Of a DNA stretch of 64,000 nucleotides, positions 209 through 44,460 are shown one piece after another. Below the pieces are notes generated by a model. That model had not been told where the DNA came from. It made no database searches and was given only the letters and a program-made list of their open reading frames with translations. Where the stretch lies: contig CM049306.1 in assembly GCA_026874595.1 (NCBI GenBank), positions 8,736,519 to 8,800,518 of the forward strand. Direction: 5' to 3'. The position numbers and the translations under genes were made by a program. Positions within the stretch are counted from its first letter, which is position 1. The number at the start of each line of letters is the position of its first letter. The stretch comes from Sipunculus nudus. Its lineage: Eukaryota; Annelida; Sipuncula; Golfingiida; Sipunculidae.

Positions 209-427
209 CCATGTATAATCCAAGATACAACAATAGAGAGAGCAAAATCTTTAATCACTGGAATGAAAGAATCAAAACAACTGCCAGAACACCTGGACTG
301 CTCAGAGTTGAATCGAGCCATCTTGTTCCTCCTGAACCATGTGCACCTAATGACTCCAGCAGGCCAGACAACTGTACTGCAGACACTCCATGAAATCATG
401 AAACTCCACCCAAAGCTACCATCACAG
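209..427 (+). CDS. AP5B1: AP5B1 exon (first in window)
   Basis: Internal exon of 73 codons, phase 0 at both ends, between a TTTGCAG acceptor and an AG|GTAAGA donor. It encodes a helical stretch that includes LNRAILFLLNHVHLMTPAGQ. I recognise this as the human AP5B1 segment around residues 270-300, where a leucine-rich helix is followed by LLTPVAQ. AP5B1 is the large beta subunit of AP-5, a HEAT-repeat adaptor complex that works with SPG11/SPG15 on late endosomes and lysosomes. About 250 N-terminal residues must lie left of the window. The last 21 bp of the exon seed a minisatellite running into the intron. Family knowledge supports the identity; the exon borders are read directly. Confidence 0.83.
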
Positions 428-880
428 GTAAGATCCCTCCACCCAACACTACCGTCACCAGTATGATCCCTCGAATCAAAACTACCATCACAGGTATGAT
501 CCCTCCAGTCAAAACTACCATCACAGGTATGATCCCTCCAGTCAGAACTACCATCACAGGTATGATCCCTCCAGTCAAAACTACCATCACAGGTATGATC
601 ACTCCATCCAAAACCACCATCACAGGTATGATCCCTCCATCCAAAACTACCATCACAGGTATGATCCCTCCATCCAAAACTACCATCACAGGTATGATCC
701 CTCCATCCAAAACTACCATCACACGTATGATCCCTCTACCCAAAACTACCATCAGAGGTTTGATCCCTCTCCCTGAAACTGCCATCACAGGTTTGATCTC
801 TCCAGCCAAAACTACCATCACAGGTTTGATCTCTCCAGCCAAAACTACCATCACAGGTTTGATCCCTCCATCCAAAACTC
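407..880 (+). repeat. 33-bp minisatellite over the exon 1 donor
   Basis: About 14 tandem copies of a 33-bp unit. The first copy is the last 21 bp of the AP5B1 exon plus the first 12 bp of the intron. Later copies keep the CATCACAG|GT core, so each holds a donor-like AG|GT. Because 33 is a multiple of 3, both strands stay open over the array, giving spurious ORFs. The distal copies (745-880) are more diverged, with GTTTGATC replacing GTATGATC. Confidence 0.93.
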
Positions 881-1288
881 ACTTCCACTTAGTCTTTTTT
901 TAGATAAATTCCAAACAGTAACTAAAACATTGATGCATAGGTAACCTTGATATTTGCAGTGCATTTGCATTGTTTTTAGCTTGATTCATTCATTGATGAA
1001 GTGGCACCTCTTACAACACAAGTTATATTGTAATTTAGGGTATTTCCAAAATGTACCAAAGAAAATTAACATCTTCAGTTGTATGCTGAAATAAATGAAG
1101 TTGTCACTAGATGTCATTTTTCTTTCCTTATTGAGTGTCATACTTTTCCAACCTCCCATTGTTAGGCAGGTATGTAAGTCTGTATATCATTTAAATCAAA
1201 CATAACAGACACAATTCAATATTGTGCGTCAGGCTTATTTTGCAGATTAGATAAAATTTCCTTTCTGAAAATCCTGTTTACCTTTCAG
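881..1288. other. AP5B1 intron, rest of intron after exon 1
   Basis: AT-rich single-copy intron sequence that ends in the polypyrimidine tract and CAG before 1289. I see no mobile element or coding potential in it. Confidence 0.6.
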
Positions 1289-1369
1289 TTGCTGGGCCAG
1301 TACTGTCAGAGGTCAGTCAACTCCACCAGTCCCTTGCTGTTCCATCTGAGTCACAGAATCCTTTCAGAG
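1289..1369 (+). CDS. AP5B1: AP5B1 exon 2 of window
   Basis: Exon of 27 codons, phase 0 to phase 0, between CCTTTCAG and GAG|GTTAGT. It encodes a short HEAT-type helix pair (LLGQYCQRSV, then PLLFHLSHRILSE). The position matches the leucine-rich stretch that follows LLTPVAQ in human AP5B1. The frame is open and continues the frame of exon 209-427. Confidence 0.78.
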
Positions 1370-1838
1370 GTTAGTCATAATCAAAGCAAGATAATTAGTT
1401 CCACCTTTTTGTTTTTTTTTGTAGGAATATATGTGAGTTACTGAATAATATTTTGTTAGGCTCTATGTATGAAGACATCATCAGTGTGTAGAGCTCATAA
1501 CAAATAAACCAGACTTAATTTATATTAGATATTATTTTTTTTTTCACTTTATCACTGAGTCATTAGACAAAACCCAAGTTTGGTTACAGTAATGGTTATT
1601 GTAATAGATAATTATTGTAATAGATAATTTATTTCTTTTTACAGTGAGATAGCCAGGCTTTTTTCAGAGATAAATACTTACAGGGGCTGGTTATTCTTAT
1701 TTATTAATTGCAACTTTTAAATAGTAGTTGATACAGAAACCAGGACGCTGTTTTGTAATCGTGAGTTATTTATATCAGATTAATGATTTTTGATGGTGTA
1801 CTTATTTACTTACTGGTGACCCTGTGTGCTGTGTTTAG

Positions 1839-1955
1839 TTACAGAAGCCAGACAAGGTCAGTCTTCAGACAGATCTGATGGAGGCATGCACAGTTGGCTT
1901 CACCCTGCCACTGGAGCTCAAACTGCTGTGTCTGCAGTGGTTTCATGCTGATCAG
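1839..1955 (+). CDS. AP5B1: AP5B1 exon 3 of window
   Basis: Exon of 39 codons, phase 0 to phase 0, acceptor TGTTTAG and donor CAG|GTAGTG. An alternative acceptor 6 bp downstream (TTACAG) would stay in frame. The product includes LPLELKLLCLQWFHADQ, corresponding to the HLFYLHCVLSF-type helix in the human protein. The next exon is almost 16 kb away because the intron holds the 59-bp array and its insertions. Confidence 0.78.
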
Positions 1956-2905: not shown

Positions 2906-4851
2906 TGGTACTATCACATGTTGGAGAGATACCTGAAGATACACTTAATGACATCCTGATGATTGTTAACCTTCATAGGTTGGAGAGATACCTGCAGATA
3001 CACTTAAAGACACCCTGATGATTGTTCCCTTCACAGGTGGGAGAGATACCTGAAAATACACTTAATGACATCCTGATGGTTGTTAACCTTCATAGGTGGA
3101 GAGATACCTGCAGATACACTTAACGACACCTTGATGATTGTTAACCTTCACAGGTGGGAGAGATACCTGCAGATACACTTAACGACACCCTGATGATTGT
3201 TAACCTTCACAGGTGGGAGAGATACCTGCAGATACACTTTACGACACCCTGATGATTGTTAACCTTCACAGATGGGTAAGATACCTGCAGATACACTTAA
3301 CAACACCCTGATGATTGTTTACCTACACAGGTGGGAGAGCTATCTGCAGATACACTTAATGACACCCTGATGATTTTTAACCTTCACAGGTGGGAGAGAT
3401 ACCTGCAGATACACTTAACAACACCCTGATGATTGTTTACCTTCACAGGTGGGAGAGATCCTGCAGATACACTTAATAACATCCTGATGATTGTTAACCT
3501 TCATAGGTGAGAGAAATACCTGCAGATACACTTAACAATGACACCCTGGTGATTGTTTACCTTCACAGGTGGGAGAGCTATCTGCAGATACACTTAATGA
3601 CACCCGGATGATTTTTAACTTCACAGGTGTGAGAGATACCTGCAGATACACTTAAAGACACCCTGATGATTGTTTACCTCCACAGGTGGGAGAGATACCT
3701 GCAGATACACTTAACCACACCCTGATGATTGTTTTCCTTCACAGATGGGAGAGATACCTGCAGATACACTTAACGACACCCTGATGATTGTTTACCTTCA
3801 CAGGTGGGAGAGATACCTGCAGATACACTTAACGACATCTTGTGATTGTTAACCTTCACAGGTGGAAGAGATACCTGCAGATACACTTAATGATATCCTG
3901 ATGATTGTTAACCCTCACAGGTGGGAGAGATACCTTCAGATACACTTAACGACACCCTGATGATAGTTAGCCTTCACAGGTGGGAGAAATACCTGCAGAT
4001 ACACTTAATGACATCCTAATGATTGTTAACCCTCACAGATGGGAGAGATACCTTCAGATACACTTAATGACATCCTGATGATAGTTAGCCTTCACAGGTG
4101 GGAGAAATACCTGCAGATACACTTAACAACAACTGTATGATTTTTAAACTTCACAGGTGGGAGAGATACCTGCAGATACACTTAATGACACCCTGATGAT
4201 TGTTGACCTACACAGGTGGGAGAGATACCTGCAGATACACTAAACGACACCCTGATGCTTGTTAATCTTCACAGGTGGGAGAGATACCTGCAGATACACT
4301 TAACAACACCCTGATGATTGTTTACCTTCACAGGTGGGAGAGATACCTGCAGATACACTTAACGACACCCTGATGATTTTTAACCTTCACAGGTGGGAGA
4401 GATACCTGCAGATACACTTAACGACACCCTGATGATTGTTCCCTTCACAGGTAGGAGAGAAACCTGAAGATACATTTAATGACATCCTGATGATTTTTAA
4501 CCTTTATAGGTGGGAGAGATACCTGCACCTACACTTAAGGACACCCTGATGATTGTTCCCTTCACAGGTAGGAGAGAAACCTGAAGATACACTTAACGAC
4601 ACCCTGATGATTGTTTACCTTCACAGGTGGGAGAGATACCTTCAGATACACTTAATGACATCCTGATGATAGTTAGCCTTCACAGGTGGGAGAAATACCT
4701 GCAGATACACTTAATGACACCCTGATGATTGTTAACCTTCACAGGTGAGAGAAATACCTGCAGATACACTTAACAATGACACCCTGATGATTGTTTACCT
4801 TCACAGGTGGGAGAGTTACCTGCAGATACACTTAATGACACCCGGATGATT
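2906..4851 (+). repeat. 59-bp acceptor-derived array, left block
   Basis: About 33 tandem copies of a 59-bp unit with consensus core CTTCACAG|GTGGGAGAGAT. Each unit equals the last 16 bp of an intron plus the first 43 bp of the AP5B1 exon at 17912. Sporadic 57-62-bp variants occur. The block is cut at 4852 by a Helentron-like insertion and resumes at 10636. The first copies are the most diverged. Confidence 0.95.
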
Positions 4852-4899
4852 TTTAGCTCAGCTGACTGAAAGTCATCTGAGCTATAGCGATCACTCTTT

Positions 4900-4932
<33 letters not shown>

Positions 4933-4952
4933 CCGTCTGTCCGTCTGTCTGT

Positions 4953-8063: not shown

Positions 8064-10635
8064 TTTAGCTCAGCTGACTATAAGTCATCTGAGCTATAGT
8101 CGTGGTCCATTGTCCGTCGTCCGTCCGTCCGTCTGTCTGTCCGTCCGTCTGTCCGTAGATGTGGCATGTTTTGAAACCGTAAGACCTAGGAATCCAAAAT
8201 TCGGCATAATGTTAGATGTCCCCAAGATCTCCTACCAAGCCGAAAACTGGGTGTTTGCAACTTCGTTCCTTTGAGAAATTAAGGAAAAACCTCAATTTTT
8301 TATTAAAAACCTATTTTCACACTTCAGGACTGCCTAATATCAAAACCACTCATCTGTTTTACCTCATATTTACTATAAATATTCCTCTATATAGTTCCTA
8401 TGTACATGCCAGAAATTATGTCTGTATTATTTAATTTAAAAAAGTTATGGGCCCAAACATAATGCATTTTGTAAAAAATCAGAAATGATATTTGATCACT
8501 TAACACAAAAAATGTTAATGCTATGGACCTTTTTTCCAGTAATATAACTTTAATTAATCAAAATTAAATTGTATACCCAAAATTAGATGAAAATCTTTTA
8601 AATTTTTTAAAATATTAATAAAAAAAAAAATCGGTACCTTAAATTTTGCCCAACTTTGACCATGGCACGTTTTTTTCCTGTAAGTACTGTGGATTTAATT
8701 TTCACAGCATGTTTTTGTTAGCATTTCAACTGTTAACACCAAAAATTTGAAACCAGTTGATCAAAAACTGTAGATTTTAATCAAGTTTTCAAGCACCATG
8801 TAACATATTGTTTACATCAAGCTAGTGTTATGCAGTTTGCAAGAGCTCAGCTCCCCAGCTTCAGCTCTAAGTTCCTTAAATTCGGCATACAGTTAGATGT
8901 CTCCAAAATGCCCTACCATGCCAAGAATTTGGTCTCTAGGACATTCGAGATATTAATGAAAAACTTTATTTTTCCATTAAAAACCCATTGTTACACTTCA
9001 AGACTGCCTAATATCAAAACCACTGATCTGACTTTAATCATAAATAATATGCATATTTTTCATTCTCTATGCACATGCCAGAATGATGTCAGTATTGTGT
9101 AATTGTTTTAAGTTATGGGCCCAAACATAATGCACTTTGTAAAAAATCAAGAAATATATTTACTCCCTTAACAAGAGCATTGCTGAAGCTAGAGATTTTT
9201 TTGTCAGGGATGTAACATTATTTAATCAAGATTCAATTGAATACCCAAAATTAGTACCTTAAATTTTGCCCAACTGTGACCATGGCACGTTTGTTTCCCG
9301 TGAGCACTGTTGATATAATTTTCATATCATGCACACATAAGCATTTCAGCTTTTTAGTTTAGAAAGCTGAAAGAAATTGGCCAAAAATTGTAGCTTTAAT
9401 TAATGTTTTTTATGAGACCCTGTCAGACTTTGGCTCTCTCCAGCCCCCTTTGAGTCACCTGTATGTTGACCTTGTTGACCTTTCATCAAATTATGCACGC
9501 TTGAGGCGAGGCATACATGGAATCCAGGCAGCTTATGGCAAGCCACAGTTGATCCAGGTGTCCAACCCAACTCATCTAGTAGTTTTAACCAAGAACATAA
9601 CAAAAAACAATAAATTAATAAATTTTTATTGGTTTTTAATAACAAATTAAAGAAAAATAGAAAAGGAATTTGTTAGTTTATAATAACAGGAAATTAACTT
9701 GCAGTTACTGATGATATAAGAATCTTGTATCGTTGGGTAGAATGTCACATATTCCAAATAACACCATGCAGTCACCTATGGCATTTTTCAGTTCAATTTT
9801 AATGATAAAGAAGTAAATCATATTATTCATTACTAATCATTAGGGATAATATGAAGGAAATTAGACAAAGATGCAGTTGATAATATTAATCTAGATTCCT
9901 GCTGTGTTTAGTGTGTACATTGATGTGAAATTAGTCCAAAATGAATTTTTTACAGTTATTTTTTAATATAAATAAAAGCCATAAAACCAGGTACTTATGA
10001 TCATTATTTAAATGTGTGAATTTTGTATATTCTGGATTCTCAACATCATTGTATGGTGAAAACTGAATAAATTCCAGACATGGTGCAAATACTTTGTAAT
10101 TGTATTTAAATACGAATATGATTTTGTACTCCATTATAAAATTTCTTGCATAAAGAATGGGAATTCAGGTAAAAATGAAAATATATGAATACTCGTGCAA
10201 ATACTTTCAAAATGTATTCATGAATGCATTCATGAATATATTCTTTAATATTATTTTAAAAATCATATCAGTTATATTTCATTTTAAAAAATCATATGAT
10301 TCTCTTATTATTTTTAATAAAAATTATATTTGGGACAGTATTTGTATTTTTTAAAATAAATAGTTAAACTCTTATATTATATGTTCTGCTTATAAGTTAT
10401 ATGGCCAAGTCAAAATCTGTGTGACAATAGTAATCCATTTGTTAATAAAATAAATGAAATCAATCCTCTTCCCTGTCTCCAAAGGTACTATCAAAATCAT
10501 ACATAAGCTAAACAACAACAACTCATAATACAGCTTATATTTATTACCACACAAAACTAGCATGTGCCTCATTTCTAAATAATATTTTTTTATCATATAT
10601 AACAGCTGAGCGTCGTGACCCATAGGTCCCTTGTT
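8064..10635 (+). mobile_element. Second Helentron-like element sharing the 3' end
   Basis: A second TTTTAGCTCAGCTGACTATA 5' terminus starts at 8064, inside the CACCTGTATTTTT segment of a 338-bp core unit. From there the sequence is closely related throughout to the element at 36051-38711, including GCCCAAACATAATG blocks and the same 3' end. The region is AT-rich and I see no convincing gene in it. Confidence 0.78.
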
Positions 10636-13600
10636 AACCTTCACAGGTAGGAGAGATACCTGCAGATACACTTAAAGACACCCTGATGATTGTTTACCTC
10701 CACAGGTGGGAGAGATACCTGCAGATACACTTAATGACATCCTGTGATTGTTAGCCTTCGCAGGTGGGAGAGATGCCTGCAGATACACTTAATGACCATC
10801 TAATGATTGTTAACCCTCACAGGTGGGAGAGATACCTGCAGATACACTTAACGACACCCTGATGATTGTTTACCTTCACAGGTGGGAAAGATACCTGCAG
10901 ATACACTTAACGACATCCTGTGATTGTTAACCTTCACAGGTGGAAGAGATACCTGCAGATACACTTAATGACATCCTGATGATTGTAAACCCTCACAGGT
11001 GGGAGAGATACCTTCAGATACACTTAACGACACCCTGATGATAGTGAGCCTTCACAGGTGGGAGAAATACCTGCAGATACACTTAATGACATCCTAATGA
11101 TTGTTAACCCTCACAGATGGGAGAGATACCTTCAGATACACTTAATGACATCCTGATGATAGTTAGCCTTCACAGGTGGGAGAAATACCTGCAGATACAC
11201 TTAACAACACCTGTATGATTTTTAACCTTCACAGGTGGGAGAGATACCTGCAGATACACTTAATGACACCCTGATGATTGTTTACATACACAGGTGGGAG
11301 AGATACCTGCAGATACACTTAACAACACCCTGATGATTGTTTACCTTCACAGGTGGGAGAGATACCTGCAGATACACTTAACGACACCCTGATGATTTTT
11401 AACCTTCACAGGTGGGAGAGATACCTGCAGATCCACTTAAGGACACCCTGATGATTGTTCCCTTCACAGGTAGGAGAGAAACCTGAACATACATTTAATG
11501 ACATCCTGATGATTTTTAACCTTCATAGGTGGGAGAGATACCTGCAGATACACTTAATGACATCCTGATGATTGTTAGCCTTCACAGGTGGGAGAGATAC
11601 CTGCAGATACACTTTATGACATCCTAATGATTGTTAACCCTCACAGATGGGAGAGATACCTTCAGATACACTTAATGACATCCTGATGATAGTTAGCCTT
11701 CACAGGTGGGAGAAATACCTGCAGATACACTTAAGGACACCCTGATGATTGTTAACCTTCACAGGTGAGAGAAATACCTGCAGATACACTTAACAATGAC
11801 ACCCTGGTGATTGTTTACCTTCACAGGTGGGAGAGTTACCTGCAGATACACTTAATGACACCCGGATGATTTTTAACCTTCACAGGTGGGAGAGATACCT
11901 GCAGATACACTTAAAGACACCCTGATGATTGTTTACCTCCACAGGTGGGAGAGATACCTGCAGATACACTTAATGACATCCTGTGATTGTTAGCCTTCGC
12001 AGGTGGGAGAGATACCTGCAGATACACTTAATGACCCCCTAATGATTGTTAACCCTCACAGGTGGGAGAGATACCTGTAGATACACTTAATGACCTCCTA
12101 ATGATTGTTAACCCTTACAGGTGGGAGAGATACCTGTAGATACACTTAACAACACCCTAATGATTGTTTACCTACATAGGTGGGAGAGATACCTGCAGAT
12201 ACACTGAACAACACCCTGATGATTGTTTACCTTCACAGGTGGGAGAGAAACCTGCAGATCCACTTAAGGACACCCTGATGATTGTTTACCTTCACAGGTG
12301 GGAGAGATACCTGCAGATACACTTAACAACGGAACCCTGGTGTTTGTTAACCTTCACAGGTGGGAGAGATACCTGCAGATACACTTAACGACACCCTGAT
12401 GATTATTTACCTTTACAGGTGGGAGAGATGCCTGCAGATACACTTAATTACACCTGGATGATTTTTAACCTTCAAAGGTGGGAGAGATACCTGCAGATAC
12501 ACTTAAAGACACCCTGATGATTGTTTACCTCCACAGGTGGGAGAGATACCTGCAGATACACTTATTGACATCCTGTGATTGTTAGCCTTCGCAGGTGGGA
12601 GAGATACCTGCAGATACACTTAATGACCCCCTAATGATTGTTAACCCTCACAGGTGGGAGAGATACCTGTAGATACACTTAATGACCTCTTAATGATTTT
12701 TAACCCTCACAGGTGGGAGAGATACCTGTAGATACACTTAACAACACCCTAATGATTGTTTACCTTCATAGGTGGGAGAGATACCTGCAGATACACTGAA
12801 CAACACCCTGATGATTGTTTACCTTCACAGGTGGGAGAGAAACCTGCAGATCCACTTAAGGACACCCTGATGATTGTTTACCTTCACAGGTGGGAGAGAT
12901 ACCTGCAGATACACTTAACAACCAAACCCAGGTGTTTGTTAACCTTCACAGGTGGGAGAGATACCTGCAGATCTACTTAAGGACACCCTGATGATTGTTT
13001 ACCTTCACAGGTGCGAGAGATACCTGCAGATACACTTAACAACCAAACCCAGGTGTTTGTTAACCTTCACAGGTGGGAGAGATACCTGCAGATACACTTA
13101 ACGACACCCTGATGATTATTTACCTTCACAGGTGGGAGAGATGCCTGCAGATACACTTAATGACACCCTGATGATTTTTAACCTTCATAGGTGGGAAAGA
13201 TACCTGCAGATACACTTAACGACATCCTGATGATTGTTCCCTTCACAGGTAGGAGAGAAACCTGAAGATACATTTAATCACATCCTGATGATTTTTAACC
13301 TTCATAGGTGGGAGAGATACCTGCAGATACACTTAAGGACACCCTGATGATTGTTAACCTTCACAGGTAGGAGAGAAACCTGAAGATACATTAAATGACA
13401 TCCTGATGATTTTTAACCTTCATAGGTGGGAGAGATACCTGCACCTACACTTAACAACACCCTGATGATTGTTAACCTTCACAGATGGGAGAGAAACCTG
13501 CAGATACACTTAATGACACCCTGATGATTGTTAACCCTCACAGGTGGGAGAGATACCTGTAGATACACTTAATGACCTCTTAATGATTTTTAACCCTCAC

Positions 13601-16296
13601 AGGTGGGAGAGATATCTGTAGATACACTTAACAACACCCTAATGATTGTTTACCTTCATAGGTGGGAGAGATACCTGCAGATACAATGAACAACACCCTG
13701 ATGATTGTTTACCTTCACAGGTGGGAGAGAAACCTGCAGATCCACTTAAGGACACCCTGATGATTGTTTACCTTCACAGGTGGGAGAGATACCTGCAGAT
13801 ACACTTAACAACCAAACCCAGGTGTTTGTTAACCTTCACAGGTGGGAGAGATACCTGCAGATCAACTTAAGGACACCCTGATGATTGTTTACCTTCACAG
13901 GTGGGAGAGATACCTGCAGATACACTTAACAACCAAACCCAGGTGTTTGTTAACCTTCACAGGTGGGAGAGATACCTGCAGATACACTTAACGACACCCT
14001 GATGATTATTTACCTTCACAGGTGGGAGAGATGCCTGCAGATACACTTAATGACACTCTGATGATTTTTAACCTTCACAGGTGGGAGAGATACCTGCAGA
14101 TACACTTAACGACATCCTGATGATTGTTCCCTTCACAGGTAGGAGAGAAACCTGAAGATACATTTAATCACATCCTGATGATTTTTAACCTTCATAGGTG
14201 GGAGAGATACCTGCAGATACACTTAAGGACACCCTGATGATTGTTAACCTTCACAGGTAGGAGAGAAACCTGAAGATACATTAAATGACATCCTGATGAT
14301 TTTTAACCTTCATAGGTGGGAGAGATACCTGCACCTACACTTAACAACACCCTGATGATTGTTAACCTTCACAGATGGGAGAGAAACCTGCAGATACACT
14401 TAACGACACCCTGATGATTGTTTACCTTCACAGGTGGGAGAGATACCTGCAGATACACATAATGACATCCTGTGATTGTTAACCTTCACAGGTGGGAGAG
14501 ATACCTGCAGATACACTTAATGACATCCTGATGATTGTTAGCCTTCACAGGTGGGAGAGATACCTGCAGATACACTTAATGACATCCTAATGATTGTTAA
14601 CCCTCACAGATGGGAGAGATACCTTCAGATACACTTAATGACATCCTGATGATAGTTAGCCTTCACAGGTGGGAGAAATACCTGCAGATACACTTAAGGA
14701 CACCCTGATGATTGTTAACCTTCACAGGTGAGAGAAATACCTGCAGATACACTTAACAATGACACCCTGGTGATTGTTTACCTTCACAGGTGGGAGAGTT
14801 ACCTGCAGATACACTTAATGACACCCGGATGATTTTTAACCTTCACAGGTGGGAGAGATCCCTGCAGTTACACTTAAAGACACCCTGATGATTGTTTACC
14901 TCCACAGGTGGGAGAGATACCTGCAGATACACTTAATGATATCCTGTGATTGTTTGCCTTCGCAGGTGGGAGAGATACCTGCAGATACACTTAATGACCC
15001 CCTAATGATTGTTAACCCACGCAGGTGGGAGAGATACCTGTAGATACACCTAATGACCTCCTAATGATTGTTAACCCTTACAGGTGGGAGAGATACCTGT
15101 AGATACACTTAACAACACCCTAATGATTGTTTACCTTCATAGGTGGGAGAGATACCTGCAGATACACTGAACAACACCCTGATGATTGTTTACCTTCACA
15201 GGTGGGAGAGAAACCTGCAGATCCACTTAAGGACACCCTGATGATTGTTTACCTTCACAGGTGGGAGAGATACCTGCAGATACACTTAACAACGAAACCC
15301 TGGTGTTTGTTAACCTTCACAGGTGGGAGAGATACCTGCAGATACACTTAACGACACCCTGATGATTATTTACCTTCACAGGTGGGAGAGATGCCTGCAG
15401 ATACACTTAATGACACCCGGATGATTTTTAACCTTCTCAGGTGGGAGAGATACCTGCAGATACACTTAAAGACACCCTGATGATTGTTTACCTCCACAGG
15501 TGGGAGAGATACCTGCAGATACACTTATTGACATCCTGTGATTGTTAGCCTTCGCAGGTGGGAGAGATACCTGCAGATACACTTAATGACCCCCTAATGA
15601 TTGTTAACCCTCACAGGTGGGAGAGATACCTGTAGATACACTTAATGACCTCCTAATGATTTTTAACCCTCACAGGTGGGAGAGATACCTGTAGATACAC
15701 TTAACAACACCCTAATGATTGTTTACCTTCATAGGTGGGAGAGATACCTGCAGATACACTGAACAACACCCTGATGATTGTTTACCTTCACAGGTGGGAG
15801 AGAAACCTGCAGATCCACTTAAGGACACCCTGATGATTGTTTACCTTCACAGGTGGGAGAGATACCTTCAGATACACTTAACAACAAAACCCAGGTGTTT
15901 GTTAACCTTCACAGGTGGGAGAGATACCTGCAGATACACTCAACGACACCCTGATGATTATTTACCTAAACAGGTGGGAGAGATGCCTGCAGATACACTT
16001 AATGACACCCTGATGATTTTTAACCTTCAGAGGTGGGAAAGATACCTGCAGATACACTTAACGACACTCTGATGATTTTTAACCTTCACAGGTGGGAGAG
16101 ATACCTGCAGATACACTAAAAGAAATCCTGATGATTGTTCCCTTCACAGGTAGGAGAGAAACCTGAAGATACATTTAATGACATCCTGATGATTTTTAAC
16201 CTTCATAGGTGTGAGATATACCTGCACATACACTTAAGAACACCCTGATGATTGTTTACCTTCACAGGTGGTAGTGATACCTGCAGATACACTTAA
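10636..16296 (+). repeat. 59-bp acceptor-derived array, main block
   Basis: About 96 more copies of the 59-bp unit. Higher-order structure is visible. A ten-unit block near 12164 recurs 592 bp later, and again at 15127 and 15719. A long segment around 11820-13000 recurs 2963 bp (about 50 units) downstream. The block ends at ACACTTAA, where a LINE is inserted. Open frames such as those at 12164 or 15719 come from repeat periodicity and are not genes. Confidence 0.95.
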
Positions 16297-17638
16297 TAAT
16301 AATAATAATAATGAATAGTACTTATATAGCGCTGAACTCCAAAATCAGACTCACAGCGCTTGCAGTTTTACACATCAGTTACACAATATATAAATATATA
16401 AGCACACTCACACACACATACACACCTACTCACCCACACACACCCGACATTACATGTATGGTAAATGTTGCTAAGTACAAAATGCCTGCAGAAATAGGTA
16501 TGTTTTAAGATTTGTCTTAAAAGTATTGATAGTGGGGGATTTTCTAAGTTCAGCTGGAAGGGAATTTCTAGATCTTAGGGGCAATATAACTAAAAGAACG
16601 TTCACCGACTTTCGTACGGCACTTAGGCAATATTAGAAGACTTTCATTAGAAGAGCGTAGGGTGCGCACCGGCCGATAAATACATAGTTTTGACGAAAGA
16701 TATGGTGGCAGTGATCCATCAAAATATCTATAAACAAGGACTGCGAGTTTGTATTGTATCCGATGCTGAACTGGCAGCCAGTGGAGTTCCTTAAGTAACG
16801 GCGTAACGTGGTCCCTTTTTCGTTTTTTAAGAATAACACGGGCTGCATTATTTTGAAGCATTTGAAACCATGAGATTTGTTCTAACGGTGAACCTACCAA
16901 AATTGAATTACAATAATCAAGGCGTGATGTAATAGTAGCACAGACTAGCCTAGCACAAATGCTGGAGGTTAGGAAACGCCGGATGGAAGCAATACATCGG
17001 AGTTCGAGAAAAACTGCACGACACACGCTATTAAAATGATCATGCATGGAAAGTGTTCGATCAATTTTCACACCGAGGTAATTCACAGAAGTCTGGAAAG
17101 TGACATTACTACCACAAACGCTAAGGGGGGCGTTGTTAATCATCTGAAGACAGGAGTGAGAGCCAACTGGCATAACTTCGGTCTTATCAGTATTCAGTTT
17201 AAGTTTGTTGCTGGTCATCCAAGAGAGGAGATCTTCAATACAATTCTGTATACTCAACTGTACAGAACTAAATTGGTCCGGTTCGTTACTTTTAGATAGC
17301 TTGGTGTCATCCACATACTTATGAAAAGCACAATTATGAGCAGTTATAATATCAGACAAAGGTTGTGAATATAAAGTGAAAAGTACAGGCCCCAACACGG
17401 AACCCTGGGGGACACCGTACAATAGAGAGCATGGGTCAGACAATCTACTGTCAACAATAACAGCTTGGGAGCGGTTTATGAGGAAAACCATGAAAGTACT
17501 GTGTCATGTATACCAAATGTCAGTTGAAGTCTTTTAAGCAATATTGAATGATCTAGCGTGTCAAACGCCGCACTTAGGTCTAACAAAGCTATCAGAGAAA
17601 CGTGTTTCTTGTCTGTCGCCGTAAGAAGACCATCCAAA
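16297..17638 (-). mobile_element. 5'-truncated CR1/L2-like LINE in the 59-bp array
   Basis: A minus-strand non-LTR retrotransposon whose 3' end (left) is a short (TAA)n tract. It is flanked by an exact 8-bp target duplication, ACACTTAA, at 16289-16296 and 17639-17646. Its 5' end is lost within the reverse transcriptase region. The reading frame to the right of 17491 encodes an RT motif ([10 protein letters not shown]) in another frame. Confidence 0.88.
16568..17491 (-). pseudogene. Reverse transcriptase fragment of a CR1/L2-like LINE
   Basis: A 307-residue open frame covering the second half of a LINE reverse transcriptase. It carries GVPQGSVLGP, the catalytic box as YVDD (usually YADD), and the thumb and C-terminal region with LHWLPVQHRIQYK and PPYLSSKL, typical of CR1/L2-group elements. 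It has no start codon of its own. A small deletion near 17480 separates it from the upstream RT motifs, so it is a dead fragment. Confidence 0.85.
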
Positions 17639-17954
17639 ACACTTAACGACACCCTGATGATTGTTAACCTTCACAGCTGGGAGAGATACCTGCAGATACA
17701 CTTAACGACACCCTGATGATTGTTAACCTTCACAGGTGGGAGAGATACCTGCAGATACACTTAATGACATCCTGTGATTGTTAGACTTCACAGGTGGGAG
17801 AGATACCTGTAGATACACTAAATGACATCCAATAGATTGTTTACCCTCACAGGTGGGAGAGATACCTGCAGATACACTTAATGACACCCTGATGATTGTT
17901 TACCTTCACAGGTGGGAGAGATACCTGCTGATACACTTAATGACATCCTGATGA
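17639..17954 (+). repeat. 59-bp array, final copies ending in the parent exon
   Basis: About five last copies of the 59-bp unit to the right of the LINE. The final unit is the genuine acceptor and start of the AP5B1 exon at 17912. The match ends at GACATCCTGATGA, after 43 bp of exon. This identifies the parent sequence of the array. Confidence 0.93.
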
Positions 17955-18044
17955 AGCTTGCTCCATCACCATTTGACAACACTGAGGTTCAGAAGAGAAA
18001 ACTTCTACATGTGGCAGACCTGGTGCCTGCTCACACCACTCCCG
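17912..18044 (+). CDS. AP5B1: AP5B1 exon 4 of window, parent of the 59-bp array
   Basis: Exon of 133 bp, phase 0 in and phase 1 out, acceptor TACCTTCACAG and donor CCCG|GTAAGC. It encodes VGEIPADTLNDILMKLAPSP and then a Q-KRKLL helix, continuing the frame of the exon at 1839. The first 43 bp are shared with every array unit. The divergent downstream sequence and the perfect phase match to 34466 show it is the real exon. Confidence 0.82.
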
Positions 18045-19063: not shown

Positions 19064-20059
19064 CCTTAGATATTTTGTGTGTGGCAACTACCAGAGATGA
19101 GAGTAAAAAGTGGTTATCAGCATGTTGGTTTAAGCAGTCTATGCACTTGAAATATGGGTAGGCACATTAGGAATATTGTCCTATGATATTTCAACAATAA
19201 TAAATTCCAATAATAGAAATTCCAACAATTGTAACACATTTTACAAAATTTCCCCTTTACTTAAATTTACAATTCAGTCTAGTTCCCTGTTATCACAAAT
19301 TGATTAGGTGATGATTCATGTAATGGCATCATAGCTGATAAACTAAAATACATACACTGTGACAGTGATGATGTTCCACAAAAAATTTCAACTAGCAAAG
19401 TGTCAGTCACCAGATGTGAATGCATGAAGTAAATTGACATTGATTTAAATTTTTACATTACCTCAGATGTTTGAAATTTGTTATGTGGGGCAAGGTGTGT
19501 TAATTTTTTAGCAAGGCCACACATCCATACCCCTTAGATGTTTAAAAAAAACTTCAGATGCTCTTAGTATTTACATGTTCAAACTTAAATTGGAGCACAC
19601 ATGGGCATTAAGCTGTGCATATGGTTAAATCAGAATCAGTATGTGAGTAGTTAATGTTTTTTCAAAAATGTCACTGAGACTCAAAAAAACTACATAAAAA
19701 AAACAGAAATAAAGCAGAGAAAGTAAAACCAAGATGAGATTATGTATATAGTTTATTTACAAATAAATAACCTAACATATACAATATGTGTATGATATGT
19801 GGTCTGTACACTTGCATTAATATGTCAATGCATCACTTATTGATGATGAAAAGAATGAAGATCATGAGTTCATGCTGAGGTTGATTCAATAAATAGTAAT
19901 GTTTAGATACAAAACACCATGACAGATGAAGGAATACTGAAGAAATGTAAAACCAGAAACAATGTCATCAATATAATAATGCATCTTGGCAGAGTATTTA
20001 ACAAATTAACAAAGTTAATCTTCAATATTTATAATATCATATAGTGCTTGGTATTTAGA
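19064..20059. other. Intron; likely 3'UTR end of TALE copy 1
   Basis: AT-rich sequence without ORFs. A minus-strand AATAAA (TTTATT at 19752-19757) is the first strong poly(A) signal downstream of the minus-strand TALE gene. The 3'UTR would therefore include the whole 38-bp array. Confidence 0.45.
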
Positions 20060-21917
20060 TCAGTGTAGCCTGGTCTTCTTGAAGGACTGCAGGTACATCA
20101 GTGTAGCCTGGTTCTCTTGCTGGGCTGCAGGAACATCAGTGTAGCCTGGTCCTCTTGCTGGGCTGCAGGTACATCCCTGTAGCCTGGTTCTCTTGCTGGG
20201 CTGCAGGTACATCAGTGTAGCCTGGTCCTCTTGACTGACTGCAGGTACATCATTGTAGCCTGGTCCTCTTGGTGGGCTGCAAGTACATCAGTGTATCCTG
20301 GTCCTCTTGCTGGGCTGCAGGTACATCAGTGTAGCCTTGTCCTCTTGGTGGGCTGCAAGTACATCAGTATAGCCTGGTCCTCCTGCTTGGCTGCAGGTAC
20401 ATCAGTGTAGCCTCGTTCTCTTGCTAGGCTGCAGGTACATCAGTGTAGCCTGGTCCTCTTGATTGACTGCAGGTACATCAGTGTAGCCTGGTCCTCCTGC
20501 TTGGCTGCAGGTACATCAGTGTAGCCTGGTCCTCTTGGTGGGCTGCAGGTACATCAGGGTAGCCTGGTCCTCCTGCTTGGCTGCAGGTACATCAGTGTAG
20601 CCTGGTCCTCTTGGTGGGCTGCAGGTACATCAGTGTAGCCTGGTCCTCCTGCTTGGCTGCATGTACATCAGTGTAGCCTGGTCCTCTTGCTGGGCTGCGT
20701 GTACATCAGTGTAGCCTGGTCCTCTTGATTGACTGCAGGTACATCAGTGTAGCCTGGTCCTCTTGATTGACTGCAGGTACATCAGTGTAGCCTGGTCCTC
20801 TTGGTGGGCTGCAGGTACATCAGTGTAGCCTGGTCCTCTTGATTGACTGCAGGTACATCAGTGTAGCCTGGTCCTCTTGGTGGGCTGCAGGTACATCAGT
20901 GTAGCCTGGTCCTCTTGATTGACTGCAGGTACATCAGTGTAGCCTGGTCCTCTTGCTGGGCTGCGTGTACATCAGTGTAGCCTGGTCCTCTTGATTGACT
21001 GCAGGTACATCAGTGTAGCCTGGTCCTCTTGATTGACTGCAGGTACATCAGTGTAGCCTGGTCCTCTTGGTGGGCTGCAGGTACATCAGTGTAGCCTGGT
21101 CCTCTTGATTGACTGCAGGTACATCAGTGTAGCCTGGTCCTCTTGATTGACTGCAGGTACATCAGTGTAGCCTGGTCCTCTTTCTGGGCTGCGTGTACAT
21201 CAGTGTAGCCTGGTCCTCTTGATTGACTGCAGGTACATCAGTGTAGCCTGGTCCTCTTGATTGACTGCAGGTACATCAGTGTAGCCTGGTCCTCTTGATT
21301 GACTGCAGGTACATCAGTGTAGCATGGTCCTCTTGGTTGGCTGCAGGTACATCAGTGTAGCCTGGTCCTCTTGATTGACTGCAGGTACATCAGTGTAGCC
21401 TGGTCCTCTTGATTGACTGCAGTTACATCAGTGTAGCCTGGTCCTCTTGCTGGGCTGCGTGTACATCAGTGTAGCCTGGTCCTCTTGATTGACTGCAGGT
21501 ACATCAGTGTAGCCTGGTCCTCTTGATTGACTGCAGGTACATCAGTGTAGCCTGGTCCTCTTGATTGACTGCAGGTACATCAGTGTAGCCTGGTCCTCTT
21601 GATTGACTGCAGGTACATCAGTGTAGCCTGGTCCTCTTGATTGACTGCAGGTACATCAGTGTAGCCTGGTCCTCTTGATTGACTGCAGGTACATCAGTGT
21701 AGCCTGGTCCTCTTGATTGACTGCAGGTACATCAGTGTAGCCTGGTCCTCTTGATTGACTGCAGGTACATCAGTGTAGCCTGGTCCTCTTGATTGACTGC
21801 AGGTACATCAGTGTAGCATGGTCCTCTTGATTGACTGCAGGTACATCAGTGTAGCCTCATTCTTTTGCTAGGCTGCAGGTACATCAGTGTAGCCTGGTCC
21901 TCTTGCTGGGCTGCAGG
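20060..21917 (-). repeat. 38-bp array from the 3' end of TALE copy 1
   Basis: About 49 tandem copies of a 38-bp unit, on the minus strand CAGCAAGAGGACCAGGCTAC followed by ACTGATGTACCTGCAG. The first unit contains the final codons of the TALE gene, its TGA stop and a few 3'UTR bases. Two sub-types alternate (TTGATTGA versus TTGCTGGG or TTGGTGGG on the plus strand), with blocks of TTGATTGA homogenised in the middle. Confidence 0.95.
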
Positions 21918-23131
21918 TTCTGTTGGATGAGGGAGGATATTTCTTGTACAATGGCACCAGGAGCTGCCCCGCTGTTACTTGCTGTCAGGTTTTGACACAG
22001 ACTGACCAGTTGCTCCTCCAGCTTCCTCTTCTGTCTCTTGGGGCCGGTGTTAAAGCTGCGGTTACGTCTGTTGTTGAACCACGAGTTGACCTGGGTCACG
22101 GTGATGCCTCCTCGCTGTGCCATGTCTTCCTTCTCCTCTTGACTGGGGTAGGGGTGAGCCAGGTGTTGGTCAAACCAGCTGTCCATGATGGCTACGGCCT
22201 CCTTGCTCAGGAACTTGGGTTTACAACGATACTTGGTCCTTGTCTGTCTCTGTTCTGGACAGGTGGCGACACTGCTGGCAGGCTGCTGCTGCTCTGTAGT
22301 TGTCACTGTGGTGGTGACTGATTTCTGAGTCTTGTTGACTTTGACAGGTTTGTGTGGTGTTCGTTTGATGAGAGATGTTGGTGACAGTGGTGGGAAGACA
22401 TCCTCTTCTGTGAATGACAGCGGTGACAGAGGAAGCAGATCTTCCTTACTGATCCCAGACAGTGACACGGCTGTAGCAATGGTGCTGTTTTTGTCTCTGC
22501 TGGTACAGTCAGGACTGCTGGTATTCTCTGATTCCTTGCTGTTTCTCAAGTCTTTAGATGGTGTTGGTGAATAGCTACTGCTGCCCTCTAGTGACAGTGA
22601 TGGTAATGAGTGTATCCCTGAGTCTCTGGTGGTTGAAGGTGTGTTGTTGAAGCTCTGTTTGCTGCTAGACAGATCCTGAGTGAACCTTGACCCCTGACCT
22701 CTGGTGACCTGTGAGTGCCAATTTGGTGTAGAGTGTATGGGTGTGTAGTACATCATCTGTGGGCTGCTAGGTACACGGGTCCCTGGGTACAGGTACTGCT
22801 GGCTGGGGTAGCTCCACTGGGGGTACATGTAGCTGCTGACTGCTGGTGAGTAGCCTGATGCTGGATGAACCCCTGGCTGTGCTTGTGTGGTGCTGTATCT
22901 GTACATTTCCATGTGGTGCAGTCCTGTGGTGACACCTCCATACTGTGGTGAATGGTATCCTGGGTAGCCATAATGATGATACTGCTGGGTACCAGTGACC
23001 TGTGCTGCCCTCTGTGTATAACTCAGGTACTGATGGTTTTTGTGGTATCCCTGTTGTCCTGGGTAGGACCCCTGTGTACTGGTCTGTGATGTTTGTTCTA
23101 CAATCTGGGATCTGGTCTGAAGTAGATTCAT
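21884..23131 (-). CDS. TALE-class homeobox gene, copy 1
   Basis: An intact intronless ORF of 415 residues beginning ATGAATCTACTTCAG. The N-terminal two thirds is rich in Y, P, S, Q, G and T and looks disordered (probable activation or repression region). The homeodomain spans about residues 303-365. It carries the three-residue loop extension HPYPS between helices 1 and 2 that defines TALE proteins, and the recognition helix QVNSWFNNRRNR (W351). A basic KRQKRKLEEQL follows, and the tail is PSKRTRLH. It is expected to be a nuclear DNA-binding protein. Spiralian-specific TALE genes (SPILE group) act in early blastomere specification; membership is inferred, not shown. It lies antisense within a 16.4-kb AP5B1 intron. 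Confidence 0.92.
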   Translation of the reverse strand: MNLLQTRSQIVEQTSQTSTQGSYPGQQGYHKNHQYLSYTQRAAQVTGTQQYHHYGYPGYHSPQYGGVTTGLHHMEMYRYSTTQAQPGVHPASGYSPAVSSYMYPQWSYPSQQYLYPGTRVPSSPQMMYYTPIHSTPNWHSQVTRGQGSRFTQDLSSSKQSFNNTPSTTRDSGIHSLPSLSLEGSSSYSPTPSKDLRNSKESENTSSPDCTSRDKNSTIATAVSLSGISKEDLLPLSPLSFTEEDVFPPLSPTSLIKRTPHKPVKVNKTQKSVTTTVTTTEQQQPASSVATCPEQRQTRTKYRCKPKFLSKEAVAIMDSWFDQHLAHPYPSQEEKEDMAQRGGITVTQVNSWFNNRRNRSFNTGPKRQKRKLEEQLVSLCQNLTASNSGAAPGAIVQEISSLIQQNLQPSKRTRLH

Positions 23132-31310: not shown

Positions 31311-31982
31311 ACGTGGCTGGTCCTCATGCTGGGCTGTAGGTACATCAGTGTAGCCTGGTCCTCTTTCTGGGCTGCAGGTACATCAATGTAGCCTGGTCCT
31401 CTTTCCAGGCTGTAGGTACATCAGTGTAGCCTAGTCCTCTTTCCGGGCTGTAGGTACATCAGTGTAGCCTGGTCCTCATGCTGGGCTGCAGGTACATCAG
31501 TGTAGACTGGTTCTCTTGCTTTGCTGCAGGTACATCAGTGTAGCCTGGTTCTCTTGATGGGCTGTAGGTACATCAGTGTAGCCTGGTCCTCTTGGTTGGC
31601 TGCAGGTACATCAGTGTAGCCTGGTCCTCTTGCTGGGCTGCAGGTACATCAGTGTAGACTGGTTCTCTTGCTTTACTGCAGGTACATCAGTGTAGCCTGG
31701 TTCTCTTGCTGGGCTGCAGGTACATCAGTGTAGCCTGGTCTTCCTACTGGGCTGCAGGTACATCAGTGTAGCCTGGTTCTCTTGATGGGCTGCAGGTACA
31801 TCAGTGTAGCCTTTTCCTCTTGCTGGGCTGCAGGTACATCAGTGTAGACTGGTTCTCTTGCTTTGCTGCAGGTACATCAGTGTAGCCTGGTCCTCTTGCT
31901 GGGCTGCAGGTACATCAGTGTAGGCTGGCTCTCATGCTGGGCTGCAGGTACATCAGTGTAGCCTGGTTCTCTTGCTGGGCAC
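31311..31982 (-). repeat. 38-bp array from the 3' end of TALE copy 2
   Basis: About 18 copies of the same 38-bp unit as at copies 1 and 3, starting with the last codons and stop of copy 2. The copies are less homogeneous than at copy 1 and include variants such as TAGACTGGTTCTCTTGCTTT. Confidence 0.93.
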
Positions 31983-34465: not shown

Positions 34466-34619
34466 AAAAAGCAGTGACCATCTTGGAGACATGTTTAGCA
34501 AATCTGTACAAGGTGGTGTCAATGGGCGCATCAGGGAGAGTAGTTTCTGTTTTATTCCAGTGTTTGTATCACATCTTCTGCCAAAGCCAGCACCAGCTCA
34601 TAGCAGACCTTATCATCAG
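34466..34619 (+). CDS. AP5B1: AP5B1 exon 5 of window
   Basis: Exon of 154 bp, phase 1 in and phase 2 out, acceptor TTTCTTTGCAG and donor ATCAG|GTAAGT. The codon split with the exon at 17912 gives GAA. It encodes KAVTILETCLANLYKVVSMG, then VVSVLFQCLYHIFCQSQHQL, aligning with the ALATLCFQASYLVACCLAG helix of human AP5B1. Another open frame across the exon does not fit the neighbours. Strong match and correct phase. Confidence 0.87.
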
Positions 34620-34805
34620 GTAAGTACCTGTACAACACAGGCAGTTCAGGTCATATTCAGTTTAGGTTAGACCGTATCTTTGCAACACAAGTAGTATAAG
34701 TCATACTCATTTTAGGATAATCCCTGTTAGACCCAGTGGCATTAATTCTTCAAGGGTGGGGTCGGGGATGACTTGCATGGGAGAATAATTAAAGTTGGGG
34801 CTTTT

Positions 34806-34806
<1 letters not shown>

Positions 34807-41239: not shown

Positions 41240-41329
41240 GATGGTGAAAGGTGTGGTCTCCCAGCAACCTCAGCTTCTGCATCATTGTATCCATCTTGTG
41301 AGCAGCATCCAGTCACAGTGGCCTGAAAG
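41240..41329 (+). CDS. AP5B1: AP5B1 exon 6 of window
   Basis: Exon of 90 bp, phase 2 in and out, acceptor TTTGTAG and donor GAAAG|GTAAAC. It encodes MVKGVVSQQPQLLHHCIHL and VSSIQSQWPES. This corresponds to the LAQLYQARPMLAPHFVDLL region of the human protein. Codons split cleanly with both neighbours. Confidence 0.87.
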
Positions 41330-41776: not shown

Positions 41777-41912
41777 CACTGTGCCTGATTACCTGCTGAC
41801 TGGTGTGTTAGACGAGGTCATCCAGCAGGGATCAGAGCAGCTGTCCAGCCACTTCACAGCCTACACCAGTCAGCTGCAGCATGCTGTCACCTGCAGCGCC
41901 ATCTCTCCTAAA
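41777..41912 (+). CDS. AP5B1: AP5B1 exon 7 of window
   Basis: Exon of 136 bp, phase 2 in and phase 0 out, acceptor TTGTTACAG and donor AAA|GTTAGT. It encodes VPDYLLTGVLDEVIQQGSEQ and a helix ending TCSAISPK, matching the human LREPLKVVLRQVV to LQMLAKVADGDAQ part. Confidence 0.85.
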
Positions 41913-42729
41913 GTTAGTAAACAGAAGTAATACCAAAATGTGTGCCATGTTTAGACTGTGCATATACTGTCAACTTAATTATTCCCAGGATTTTTCAGTT
42001 CATGGAAAAAATGAGTAGACAATGACCATGAATTCAGGAACTTAACAAATGATTGTCAGAAAAACAAATGTGAAGATCAGTCTGCCTCCATTAACATGTA
42101 ACAGGTATCTCAAGTGTTATAAATAGGAATCATTTTCTTATTTCACTTCAACAAACACAAAGTTTGTTGAAAAATATATTGTTTAACAGCCAGTGTCATG
42201 CACACATAACAATTAAAACAAACCTGGTTTAAATGGACTTATTCACATACCAGGCATGTTAAATATTCTTGAATATGCTTGAATATGCTTTCATTGGGCA
42301 CGATCAGTTGTTCTAAACATCAACTAAGTGTGAATACCACCTAATGAATCCAGATTTTCAAGCTTCAAACAAGTGGTTCTTCTTTAGTGTTTGTTCTTTT
42401 TGTTTGAGAGGTGTTGACTGAGGATTCACAATATGGCACCTCAGGTTGCGCCATGTTGTTGTGGTAAACAGGTCAATGTGGACAGTGTTTACTAACACAC
42501 AGAACCATAACAACAAATGAAACTTGCGAATTTGAGATAGTATGTCCATGTACCAGGATGGTTTTGCTGGAAATATTTGAATTCAGCCAAAATGAACTAA
42601 TAGTGTGGTTTAATACATACATGTATATTATCACAAATGATTATGTACCTTTAATATTTTATATTTTAACTACTAATTTATATGCCAGTAAAATTTAAAT
42701 TGAGCCCTGTCTTCTTCCATCATTAACAG

Positions 42730-42853
42730 AAGATTCTCAGTCTGCTTGGTCGACTGTGGGAGGCTGGTCAGGACAGTTGGACTGCTGGACATAGACTGCT
42801 GTCGGTGTGCAGGGCAGTCATGCAGCACCACAATATGAATGAAGCCTATCTGG
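42730..42853 (+). CDS. AP5B1: AP5B1 exon 8 of window
   Basis: Exon of 124 bp, phase 0 in and phase 1 out, acceptor CATTAACAG and donor CTGG|GTATGT. It encodes KILSLLGRLWEAG, then HRLLSVCRAVMQHHNMNEAY, which aligns with LLRVCRALLRAG of human AP5B1 and is one of the clearest diagnostic matches. Confidence 0.9.
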
Positions 42854-43329
42854 GTATGTCCACTAACTCCCATACATGGTCTTCATGGTGACAGATGCTG
42901 TTTTATCCACCTTATATCAGCTCATCTTCAAATTGTATGTAAAGCTGTAGACTGCATCTGTGAATGCCTCCCATATTGGTTGTAAATAATAAGTTGTAGC
43001 ATCAAGAGAGTGAAAAATTGTGCTCAGCACACTGTGTTTTAAATTATTTTAACAAGTGTTGGCATATTAATCATACAAATGGGTTATAATGTTAAGATCT
43101 GAAGTATGATATTATATGAACTGTAAAAAAGTATTTAAGTTTGTTGACTGGTTAAAAATTTGAGGTACATGATATATCAAATAGTCTTAACATATCATAA
43201 GCTTTCATAAGAACATGTATAAGATAAGCAGCCTGAGTGCAGTCAGATGCTGCGTCCACCCACTTTGTTTAACCATCATCTTTTATTATTCATCTGCCAG
43301 TGCTCAGCTTACAGTTTGTGCTGTTACAG

Positions 43330-43436
43330 AACTCGGGGACTTTCTGACTCTCATCTTCAACTACTCCACAGACCTGGATGTGAGAGACAGAGCCCAGCAG
43401 CTCTATACCATGTTTACCTGTCTGTCTGATAAAAAG
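43330..43436 (+). CDS. AP5B1: AP5B1 exon 9 of window, parent of the 39-bp array
   Basis: Exon of 107 bp, phase 1 in and phase 0 out, acceptor CTGTTACAG and donor AAAAG|GTGAGA. It encodes ELGDFLTLIFNYSTDLDVRD and RAQQLYTMFTCLSDKK. The human counterpart has DPDGRDHARLYYILL at this site, a strong orthology signature. The last 32 bp plus 7 bp of intron are amplified downstream. Confidence 0.92.
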
Positions 43437-44460
43437 GTGAGATATACCATGTTTACCTGTCTGTCTGATAAAAAAGTTGGAATATACCATGTTTACCTGT
43501 CTGTCTGATAAAAAGTTGAGGTTATACCATGTTTTCCTGTCTGTCTGATAAAAGGTGAGATATACCATGTTTACCTGTCTGTCTGATAAAAAGGTGAGGT
43601 TAGACCATGTTTACCTGTCTGTCTGATAAAAAAGTTGGAATATACCATGTTTACCTGTCTGTCTGATAAAAAGTTAAGGTTATACCATGTTTTCCTGTCT
43701 GTCTGATAAAAGGTGAGATATACCATGTTTACCTGTCTGTCTGATAAAAAAGTTGGAATATACCATGTTTACCTGTCTGTCTGATAAAAAGTTGAGGTTA
43801 TACCATGTTTTCCTGTCTGTCTGATAAAAGGTGAGATATACCATGTTTACCTGTCTGTCTGATAAAAAGTTGAGGTTATACCATGTTTTCCTGTCTGTCT
43901 GATAAAAGGTGAGATATACCATGTTTACCTGTCTGTCTGATAAAAAAGTTGGAATATACCATGTTTACCTGTCTGTCTGATAAAAAAGTTGGAATATACC
44001 ATGTTTACCTGTCTGTCTGATAAAAAGTTGAGGTTATACCATGTTTTCCTGTCTGTCTGATAAAAGGTGAGATATACCATGTTTACCTGTCTGTCTGATA
44101 AAAAGGTGAGGTTAGACCATGTTTACCTGTCTGTCTGATAAAAAGGTGAGATATACCATGTTTACCTGTCTGTCTGATAAAAATGTGAGATATACCATGT
44201 TTACCTGTCTGTCTGATAAAAAGGTGAGAAATACCATGTTTACCTGTCTGTCTGATAAAAAGGTGAGATATACCATGTTTACCTGTCTGTCTGATAAAAA
44301 GGTGAGATATACCATGTTTACCTGTCTGTCTGATAAAAAGGTGAGGTTAAACCATGTTTACCTGTCTGTCTGATAAAAGGTGAGATATACCATGTTTACC
44401 TGTCTGTCTGATAAAAAGATGAGGTTATACCATGTTTACATGTCTATCTGATAAAAAGGT
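43400..44460 (+). repeat. 39-41-bp donor-derived minisatellite
   Basis: About 27 tandem copies beginning with the authentic exon end. The unit is ACCATGTTTACCTGTCTGTC, then TGATAAAAAG|GTGAGATAT. Length variants of 37-41 bp reflect indels around the A-run and GTGAG/GTTGAG/GTTGGA variants. About half the copies retain a good AAG|GTGAG donor, so the natural donor is followed by many competitors. Confidence 0.95.

What the first reader, a model, noticed from the sequence alone, without database searches (positions are those of the whole stretch)
407..44460. Three minisatellites of one gene are each seeded exactly on a splice junction
AP5B1 carries three large tandem arrays, and every one has a repeat unit spanning an exon-intron boundary. 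The units are 21 bp exon + 12 bp intron (donor at 427), 16 bp intron + 43 bp exon (acceptor at 17911), and 32 bp exon + 7 bp intron (donor at 43436). In each case the array extends only to the intronic side and the terminal copy is the working splice site. Three of three is unlikely if minisatellites arise at random in about 57 kb containing 17 small exons. It suggests a shared process, such as tandem duplication anchored on AG|GT-bearing sequence, or selection that keeps splice-site copies. Tandem duplication of AGGT segments is a proposed route to new introns; here it appears as array expansion of existing sites.
Basis: partly seen in the sequence, partly recalled or inferred. Interest (0 to 1): 0.9.

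Follow-up and report, generated by a model that had tools for sequence, protein, structure and literature searches.

The report
Tandem repeats grown from exon edges
Three introns of one animal gene are swollen by short tandem repeats whose unit straddles the exon edge; this is a known oddity described in lancelets, and here it also appears at stop codons, so it is not special to splice sites.

Summary
The arrays are real. Three (33, 59 and 39 bp units) in an AP5B1 gene straddle splice junctions at donor 427, acceptor 17911 and donor 43436. A 12-exon chain with matching phases (465 aa, no stop) fits all of Pfam AP5B1_middle (E 2.4e-31); the profile crosses the first two junctions, the third rests on phase alone. 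Used as splice sites, 0 of 94, 0 of 24 and 1 of 13 decoy copies keep the frame open.

Such repeats are known in amphioxus as "mirages", with the same intron-gain model. "Three of three" leaves out other arrays. A 38 bp array sits on the stop codon of three TALE homeobox genes in the window, so the anchor looks like a coding edge rather than AG|GT. AGGT is not preferentially kept in two of the three families. The 57 kb null is too generous: with compact introns P is about 0.02-0.04 for 3 of 4 families, 0.08 if two-copy repeats count, against 5e-5 to 9e-4 with the window as target. A genome-wide test could not be run.

The parts
209..427 (+). AP5B1 exon 1 of the window chain, ends TCACAG|gtaaga
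   Evidence: phase-consistent chain, Pfam
404..892 (+). 33 bp array straddling donor 427|428; 15 parsed units, AGGT intact in 12
   Evidence: TRF 404-879, unit table
1289..1369 (+). AP5B1 exon 2
1839..1955 (+). AP5B1 exon 3
2914..4855 (+). 59 bp array, first block, in intron 3; AGGT intact in 29 of 32 full units
10631..16297 (+). 59 bp array, second block; AGGT intact in 91 of 96
16571..17503 (-). reverse transcriptase fragment between the second and third block of the 59 bp array
   Evidence: PF00078 1.9e-14
17639..17954 (+). 59 bp array, third block; last unit straddles acceptor 17911|17912; AGGT intact in 4 of 5 full units
17912..18044 (+). AP5B1 exon 4, starts cttcacag|GTGGGA
34466..34619 (+). 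AP5B1 exon 5; its donor is abutted by a degenerate 50 bp family (34620-34719 and 40626-40768)
41240..41329 (+). AP5B1 exon 6
41777..41912 (+). AP5B1 exon 7
42730..42853 (+). AP5B1 exon 8
43330..43436 (+). AP5B1 exon 9, ends AAAAAG|gtgaga
43404..44503 (+). 39 bp array straddling donor 43436|43437; 1067 of the 1131 bp of intron 9; AGGT intact in 15 of 28
44568..44634 (+). AP5B1 exon 10
   Evidence: phase and open frame only
50448..50514 (+). AP5B1 exon 11
   Evidence: phase and open frame only
51067..51166 (+). AP5B1 exon 12 (last in the tested chain)
   Evidence: phase and open frame only
20059..21918 (-). 38 bp array straddling the stop codon of TALE gene 1 (CDS 21887-23131)
31317..31980 (-). 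38 bp array straddling the stop codon of TALE gene 2 (CDS 31956-33203)
56109..56515 (+). 38 bp array straddling the stop codon of TALE gene 3 (CDS 54891-56138, stop 56139-56141)

Best explanation
These are 'mirage'-type minisatellites: a short local tandem duplication straddled the edge of a coding segment, and slippage or unequal crossing-over then expanded it into the unconstrained side (intron or 3'UTR). The exon-proximal copy is held by selection because it still carries the true splice site or stop codon; the other copies drift and homogenise. Duplications inside exons are removed by selection. Decoy copies cost little, because the proximal site is used and nearly all decoy use meets a stop. 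Shown: anatomy, frames, no general preference for AGGT. Inferred: slippage or unequal exchange, selection on the edge copy, and correct splicing. Whether coding edges are hit more often than chance is only modestly supported in this window.
For: Junction-straddling units and phase-consistent exons. Decoy copies used as splice sites with the rest of the chain unchanged keep the frame open in 0 of 94, 0 of 24 and 1 of 13 cases. The same anatomy at the stop codon of three TALE paralogs, with different copy numbers (TRF 48.9, 17.5, 10.7) and, for gene 1, a different consensus. AGGT is not preferentially kept in the 33 and 39 bp arrays: 16 of 30 and 35 of 36 four-letter windows are at least as conserved. 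Papers describe the same structures in amphioxus at 5' and 3' boundaries and report that they seem not to disturb splicing.
Against: In the largest 59 bp block AGGT is among the best kept words (only 3 of 56 windows at least as conserved, its own included), which could mean some constraint; in the other two 59 bp blocks it is 14 and 41 of 56. The odds are below 0.05 under the compact-intron null with four families, though not when two-copy rows are added (0.079), so a real bias towards junctions is neither shown nor excluded. No RNA or population data here. The decoy test counts only exon extension, not skipping or re-splicing.
Confidence: 0.62

Rival explanations
1. A duplication process anchored on AG|GT itself, as in the intron-gain model, specifically seeds arrays at splice sites.
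For: All three AP5B1 arrays sit on AG|GT junctions; 6 of 7 minisatellite consensus units of the window have AGGT on one or both strands, against 23-38% of random off-array windows of the same sizes.
Against: 12 of 24 junctions are AG|GT, so p=0.11. The TALE unit has AGGT only on the antisense strand and no splice site. Three of the six AGGT units hold a splice site anyway.
Confidence: 0.12
2. Chance: introns were small when the arrays began, so units of 33-59 bp often overlap a junction, and the pattern was chosen after it was seen.
For: Introns without large insertions have a median of 469 bp; P(at least 3 of 4) is 0.017, 0.020-0.037 with intron-specific lengths, and 0.079 if four two-copy rows in AP5B1 introns are counted. 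Intron 9 would be about 70 bp without its array.
Against: With the stop-codon family, 4 of 7 families are edge-anchored: odds 1.5e-6 to 1.3e-3 over the target sizes tried, 64, 46 and 20 kb, or 9.4e-6 to 8.9e-3 with six two-copy rows added; these were not redone with compact introns. Papers give independent examples in amphioxus.
Confidence: 0.2
3. Selection maintains multiple splice-site copies, for example for recursive or backup splicing.
For: AGGT intact in 91 of 96 units of the big 59 bp block; an acceptor followed at once by GT has the form of a recursive splice site (recalled).
Against: In the 39 bp array 13 of 28 copies have lost AGGT, and in the 33 bp array AGGT is no better kept than average. 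Decoys give broken frames.
Confidence: 0.06

Closest known systems
Amphioxus 'mirages' (Adh3, troponin C, globins BflGb6 and BflGb9, PGBD5)
   Same: Tandem repeats spanning exon-intron boundaries, at 5' and 3' ends, many but not all copies with AG/GT, units from 10 to about 160 bp, suggested route to new introns (section 16 of PMC3087553 and passages of PMC3902484).
   Different: Here up to about 134 copies (TRF 32.9 + 95.8 + 5.4); the same anatomy also at stop codons; organism not identified (the TALE genes suggest a spiralian rather than a lancelet, inference only).
Human internal tandem repeats at exon-intron boundaries in segmental duplications (PMC2812944)
   Same: Minisatellites with about 30 bp units; those at exon-intron boundaries are linked to novel introns (passages).
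   Different: Those modify exons or create introns in recent paralogs; here the existing junction is unchanged as far as the frame shows.
Intron gain by tandem duplication of AG/GT proto-splice sites (Rogers model, as cited in PMC3087553)
   Same: Duplicated AG|GT segments bracket potential GT...AG introns.
   Different: No new intron was seen or tested here; copies enlarge an existing intron.

Membership tests
mirage (junction-spanning minisatellite) | tandem repeat unit spans an exon-intron boundary | tested here: met
   three arrays
mirage (junction-spanning minisatellite) | occurs at both 5' and 3' intron ends | tested here: met
   two donors, one acceptor
mirage (junction-spanning minisatellite) | many but not all copies retain AG/GT | tested here: met
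   12/15, 15/28, 124/133 full units
mirage (junction-spanning minisatellite) | does not disturb regular splicing | not testable with these tools
   no RNA data; only frame logic
mirage (junction-spanning minisatellite) | length instability between haplotypes or somatic | not testable with these tools
   one haplotype only; the arrays of three TALE paralogs differ in copy number
mirage (junction-spanning minisatellite) | reported so far in cephalochordates | tested here: inconclusive
   organism not identified; protein database off
AGGT tandem-duplication intron gain | a new intron between duplicated AGGT copies | not tested
   needs orthologous genes or RNA

The most novel reading that the evidence does not exclude
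Coding edges (splice junctions and stop codons alike) are hotspots for minisatellite birth in several animal phyla, because exonic sequence is a preferred seed and only edge-straddling duplications survive; this steadily enlarges introns and loads them with ready-made AG|GT sites for new introns.
Probability: 0.25. Interest if true: 0.7.

Novelty: new member of a known kind. Interest (0 to 1): 0.4.

Why it matters
If junction-straddling arrays are common outside lancelets, they offer a direct, testable source of intron growth and of duplicated AG|GT sites, which the intron-gain debate needs. The stop-codon cases suggest that the cause is the coding edge rather than splicing.

Tried and rejected
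Rejected or not supported: AGGT-specific anchoring (p=0.11); selection for splice-site copies in the 33 and 39 bp arrays; an exon part in the 50 bp family at donor 34619. A first alignment ran into exon 5, but the exon tail scores no better than shuffles (p=0.13) and 27% of 790 other exonic 46-mers do as well. Degenerate old arrays at other junctions: none seen, 21 of 24 junctions at background. In that same% of 1500 random 50-mers score 50 or more, because arrays fill much of the window, so junctions (3 of 24) are not enriched for mere self-similarity; 2.3% of random 50-mers span an array edge. PDB search with the first trial protein: no match. Pfam found nothing in three long minus-strand ORFs of intron 10.

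Dropped before counting: candidate exon segments 25736-25972 and 40755-40928, typed into the first trial protein, did not fit the phase chain. Candidate exons 52501-52565, 52839-52924 and 53623-53701 were left out of the chain and of all junction counts. The seven minisatellite families are the TRF rows with units of 33-59 bp and at least 2.9 copies; six repeats with units of 20-31 bp and 2.0-2.5 copies were left out, and one search gives the odds with them in: 1.8e-4 to 3.7e-3 instead of 5e-5 to 9e-4.

Literature: nine paper searches were answered, eight on the repeats (one found no paper) and one on TALE genes. Each lists at most 20 titles, and I opened six papers. Among those six, junction-spanning minisatellites appear in amphioxus (PMC3087553, PMC3902484) and human boundary repeats in PMC2812944. 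Listed titles on tandem duplication and introns (such as PMC2891723, PMC4974935, PMC4039745) were not opened, so I cannot say that no other case is in print. Seen: passages and section 16 of PMC3087553; passages of PMC3902484, PMC2812944, PMC6905558, PMC6118893 and PMC8524836, and section 5 part 1 of the last. The founding Adh3 paper (PMC117041) is not held; what is said of it comes from citing papers. PMC6905558 has a 27 bp minisatellite within an abalone intron; whether it touches a junction was not seen.
Full report
What is there. Tandem Repeats Finder gives three arrays at the places named: 33 bp at 404-879, 59 bp in three blocks between 2914 and 17954, and 39 bp from 43404 to about 44500. 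I built a 12-exon chain by hand from GT/AG sites and reading phase: 209-427, 1289-1369, 1839-1955, 17912-18044, 34466-34619, 41240-41329, 41777-41912, 42730-42853, 43330-43436, 44568-44634, 50448-50514 and 51067-51166. It gives 465 residues without a stop and fits positions 1-367 of 367 of Pfam PF21588 AP5B1_middle, residues 30-388, with E 2.4e-31. The junctions at 427 (after residue 73) and 17911 (after residue 139) lie inside that match. The one at 43436 (after residue 387) lies at its end, so exon 10 onward rests on phase and open frame.

Only the exon-proximal copy works. With the rest of the chain unchanged, using another copy as the splice site gives a stop in 94 of 94 CACAG|GT decoys of the 59 bp array and 24 of 24 AG|GT decoys of the third, and in 12 of 13 in-register GT decoys of the first. 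The one open case in the first array adds 33 bp, at a copy that has lost its AG. This tests exon extension only; re-splicing of such products was not considered.

Are the copies kept as splice sites? The unit tables say mostly not. AGGT is intact in 12 of 15 units (33 bp), 15 of 28 (39 bp), and 29 of 32, 91 of 96 and 4 of 5 full units (the three 59 bp blocks). Of all four-letter windows, 16 of 30, 35 of 36, 14 of 56, 3 of 56 and 41 of 56 respectively are at least as conserved. Only the large 59 bp block hints at anything; in the 39 bp array 10 of 28 units carry a G-to-T change at the first intron base, in recurring variants.

Is three of three surprising? The window holds seven minisatellite families with units of 33-59 bp and at least 2.9 copies (33, 59, 38, 39, 50, 33b, 47), not three. 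With the window, or the window less its arrays, as target, at least 3 of 7 at junctions has odds of 5e-5 to 9e-4; with 20 kb, 1.7e-3 to 1e-2. With six two-copy repeats added these become 1.8e-4 to 3.7e-3 and 5e-3 to 3.5e-2. But introns 3, 4, 5 and 10 are long (5.8 to 16.4 kb). The 59 bp array in intron 3 is interrupted, in one gap by a reverse transcriptase fragment, and intron 4 holds two TALE genes with their arrays. The other seven introns have a median of 469 bp with arrays collapsed. At that size the odds of at least 3 of 4 intron families at junctions are 0.017, and 3 of 3 are 0.004. With intron-specific lengths, partly estimated by me, they are 0.020-0.037 and 0.011. With four two-copy rows in AP5B1 introns added, 0.079. 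At 1 kb and 2 kb the odds fall to 0.0022 and 0.0003. The excess is therefore modest, depends on the intron size assumed, and was chosen after the fact.

Not only splice sites. The 38 bp arrays at 20059-21918, 31317-31980 and 56109-56515 each include the last ten codons and the stop of a TALE homeobox gene (Homeobox_KN E 6.7e-14 to 3.5e-15). The unit is 30 coding bases, the stop and 5 bases of 3' sequence. The three proteins share 383-384 of 415-416 aligned residues, but the arrays differ in copy number (TRF 48.9, 17.5, 10.7) and gene 1 has its own consensus. This is the same anatomy at a coding edge without a splice site. I count it as one family, since the array may have been copied with the gene. 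A fourth AP5B1 family, 50 bp, begins right behind donor 34619 and resumes at 40626 in the same intron; an exon part is not supported.

What it is. Papers describe such repeats in amphioxus and call them mirages: globins BflGb6 and BflGb9, Adh3, troponin C and PGBD5, at 5' and 3' intron ends, with many but not all copies bearing AG/GT, and with an intron-gain model drawn from them. Human boundary minisatellites linked to novel introns are also in print. I file this as a new member of that kind. The species is not identified: the shared protein database was off and the genome search did not complete. The TALE paralogs suggest a spiralian such as a mollusc; that is inference from papers on SPILE genes and from recalled repeat signatures, not a test. 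If so, this would extend mirages beyond cephalochordates. I met no such case in the six papers opened from nine answered searches, which cover open-licence papers only and show capped lists.

Mechanism. The simplest account is duplication straddling a coding edge, growth by slippage or unequal exchange into the unconstrained side, and retention of the edge copy by selection. AP5B1 exons are richer in G+C (0.48) than the sequence outside arrays (0.36). Three of four edge-anchored units are GC-rich (0.48, 0.44, 0.55, but 0.36 for the 39 bp unit), while the three others are 0.33-0.36. A preference for exonic seeds is therefore possible but untested.

Noticed in passing
21887-23131 (-), 31956-33203 (-), 54891-56141 (+): Three TALE homeobox paralogs, each a single open frame of 415-416 codons with near-identical TATA-like upstream regions, two of them antisense inside AP5B1 intron 4; dN 0.040, dS 0.106 for copies 2 and 3, which fits purifying selection.
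   Followed up: partly
16298-17638: Reverse transcriptase fragment between two blocks of the 59 bp array, with a TAA-repeat end and an ACACTTAA word at both flanks that may be a target-site duplication.
   Followed up: partly
4955-7785 and 62339-63175: 336-343 bp satellite-like repeat in two places; the first lies next to GTCC-type simple repeats.
   Followed up: no
34620-34719 and 40626-40768: 50 bp family starting right at the donor of exon 5 and split by about 5.9 kb of other DNA.
   Followed up: partly
61389-61901: 47 bp array, about 11 copies, with AAGGT in the consensus unit and no exon seen beside it.
   Followed up: no
43404-44503: The 39 bp array has higher-order units of about 118 bp and makes up 1067 of the 1131 bp of its intron.
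   Followed up: partly
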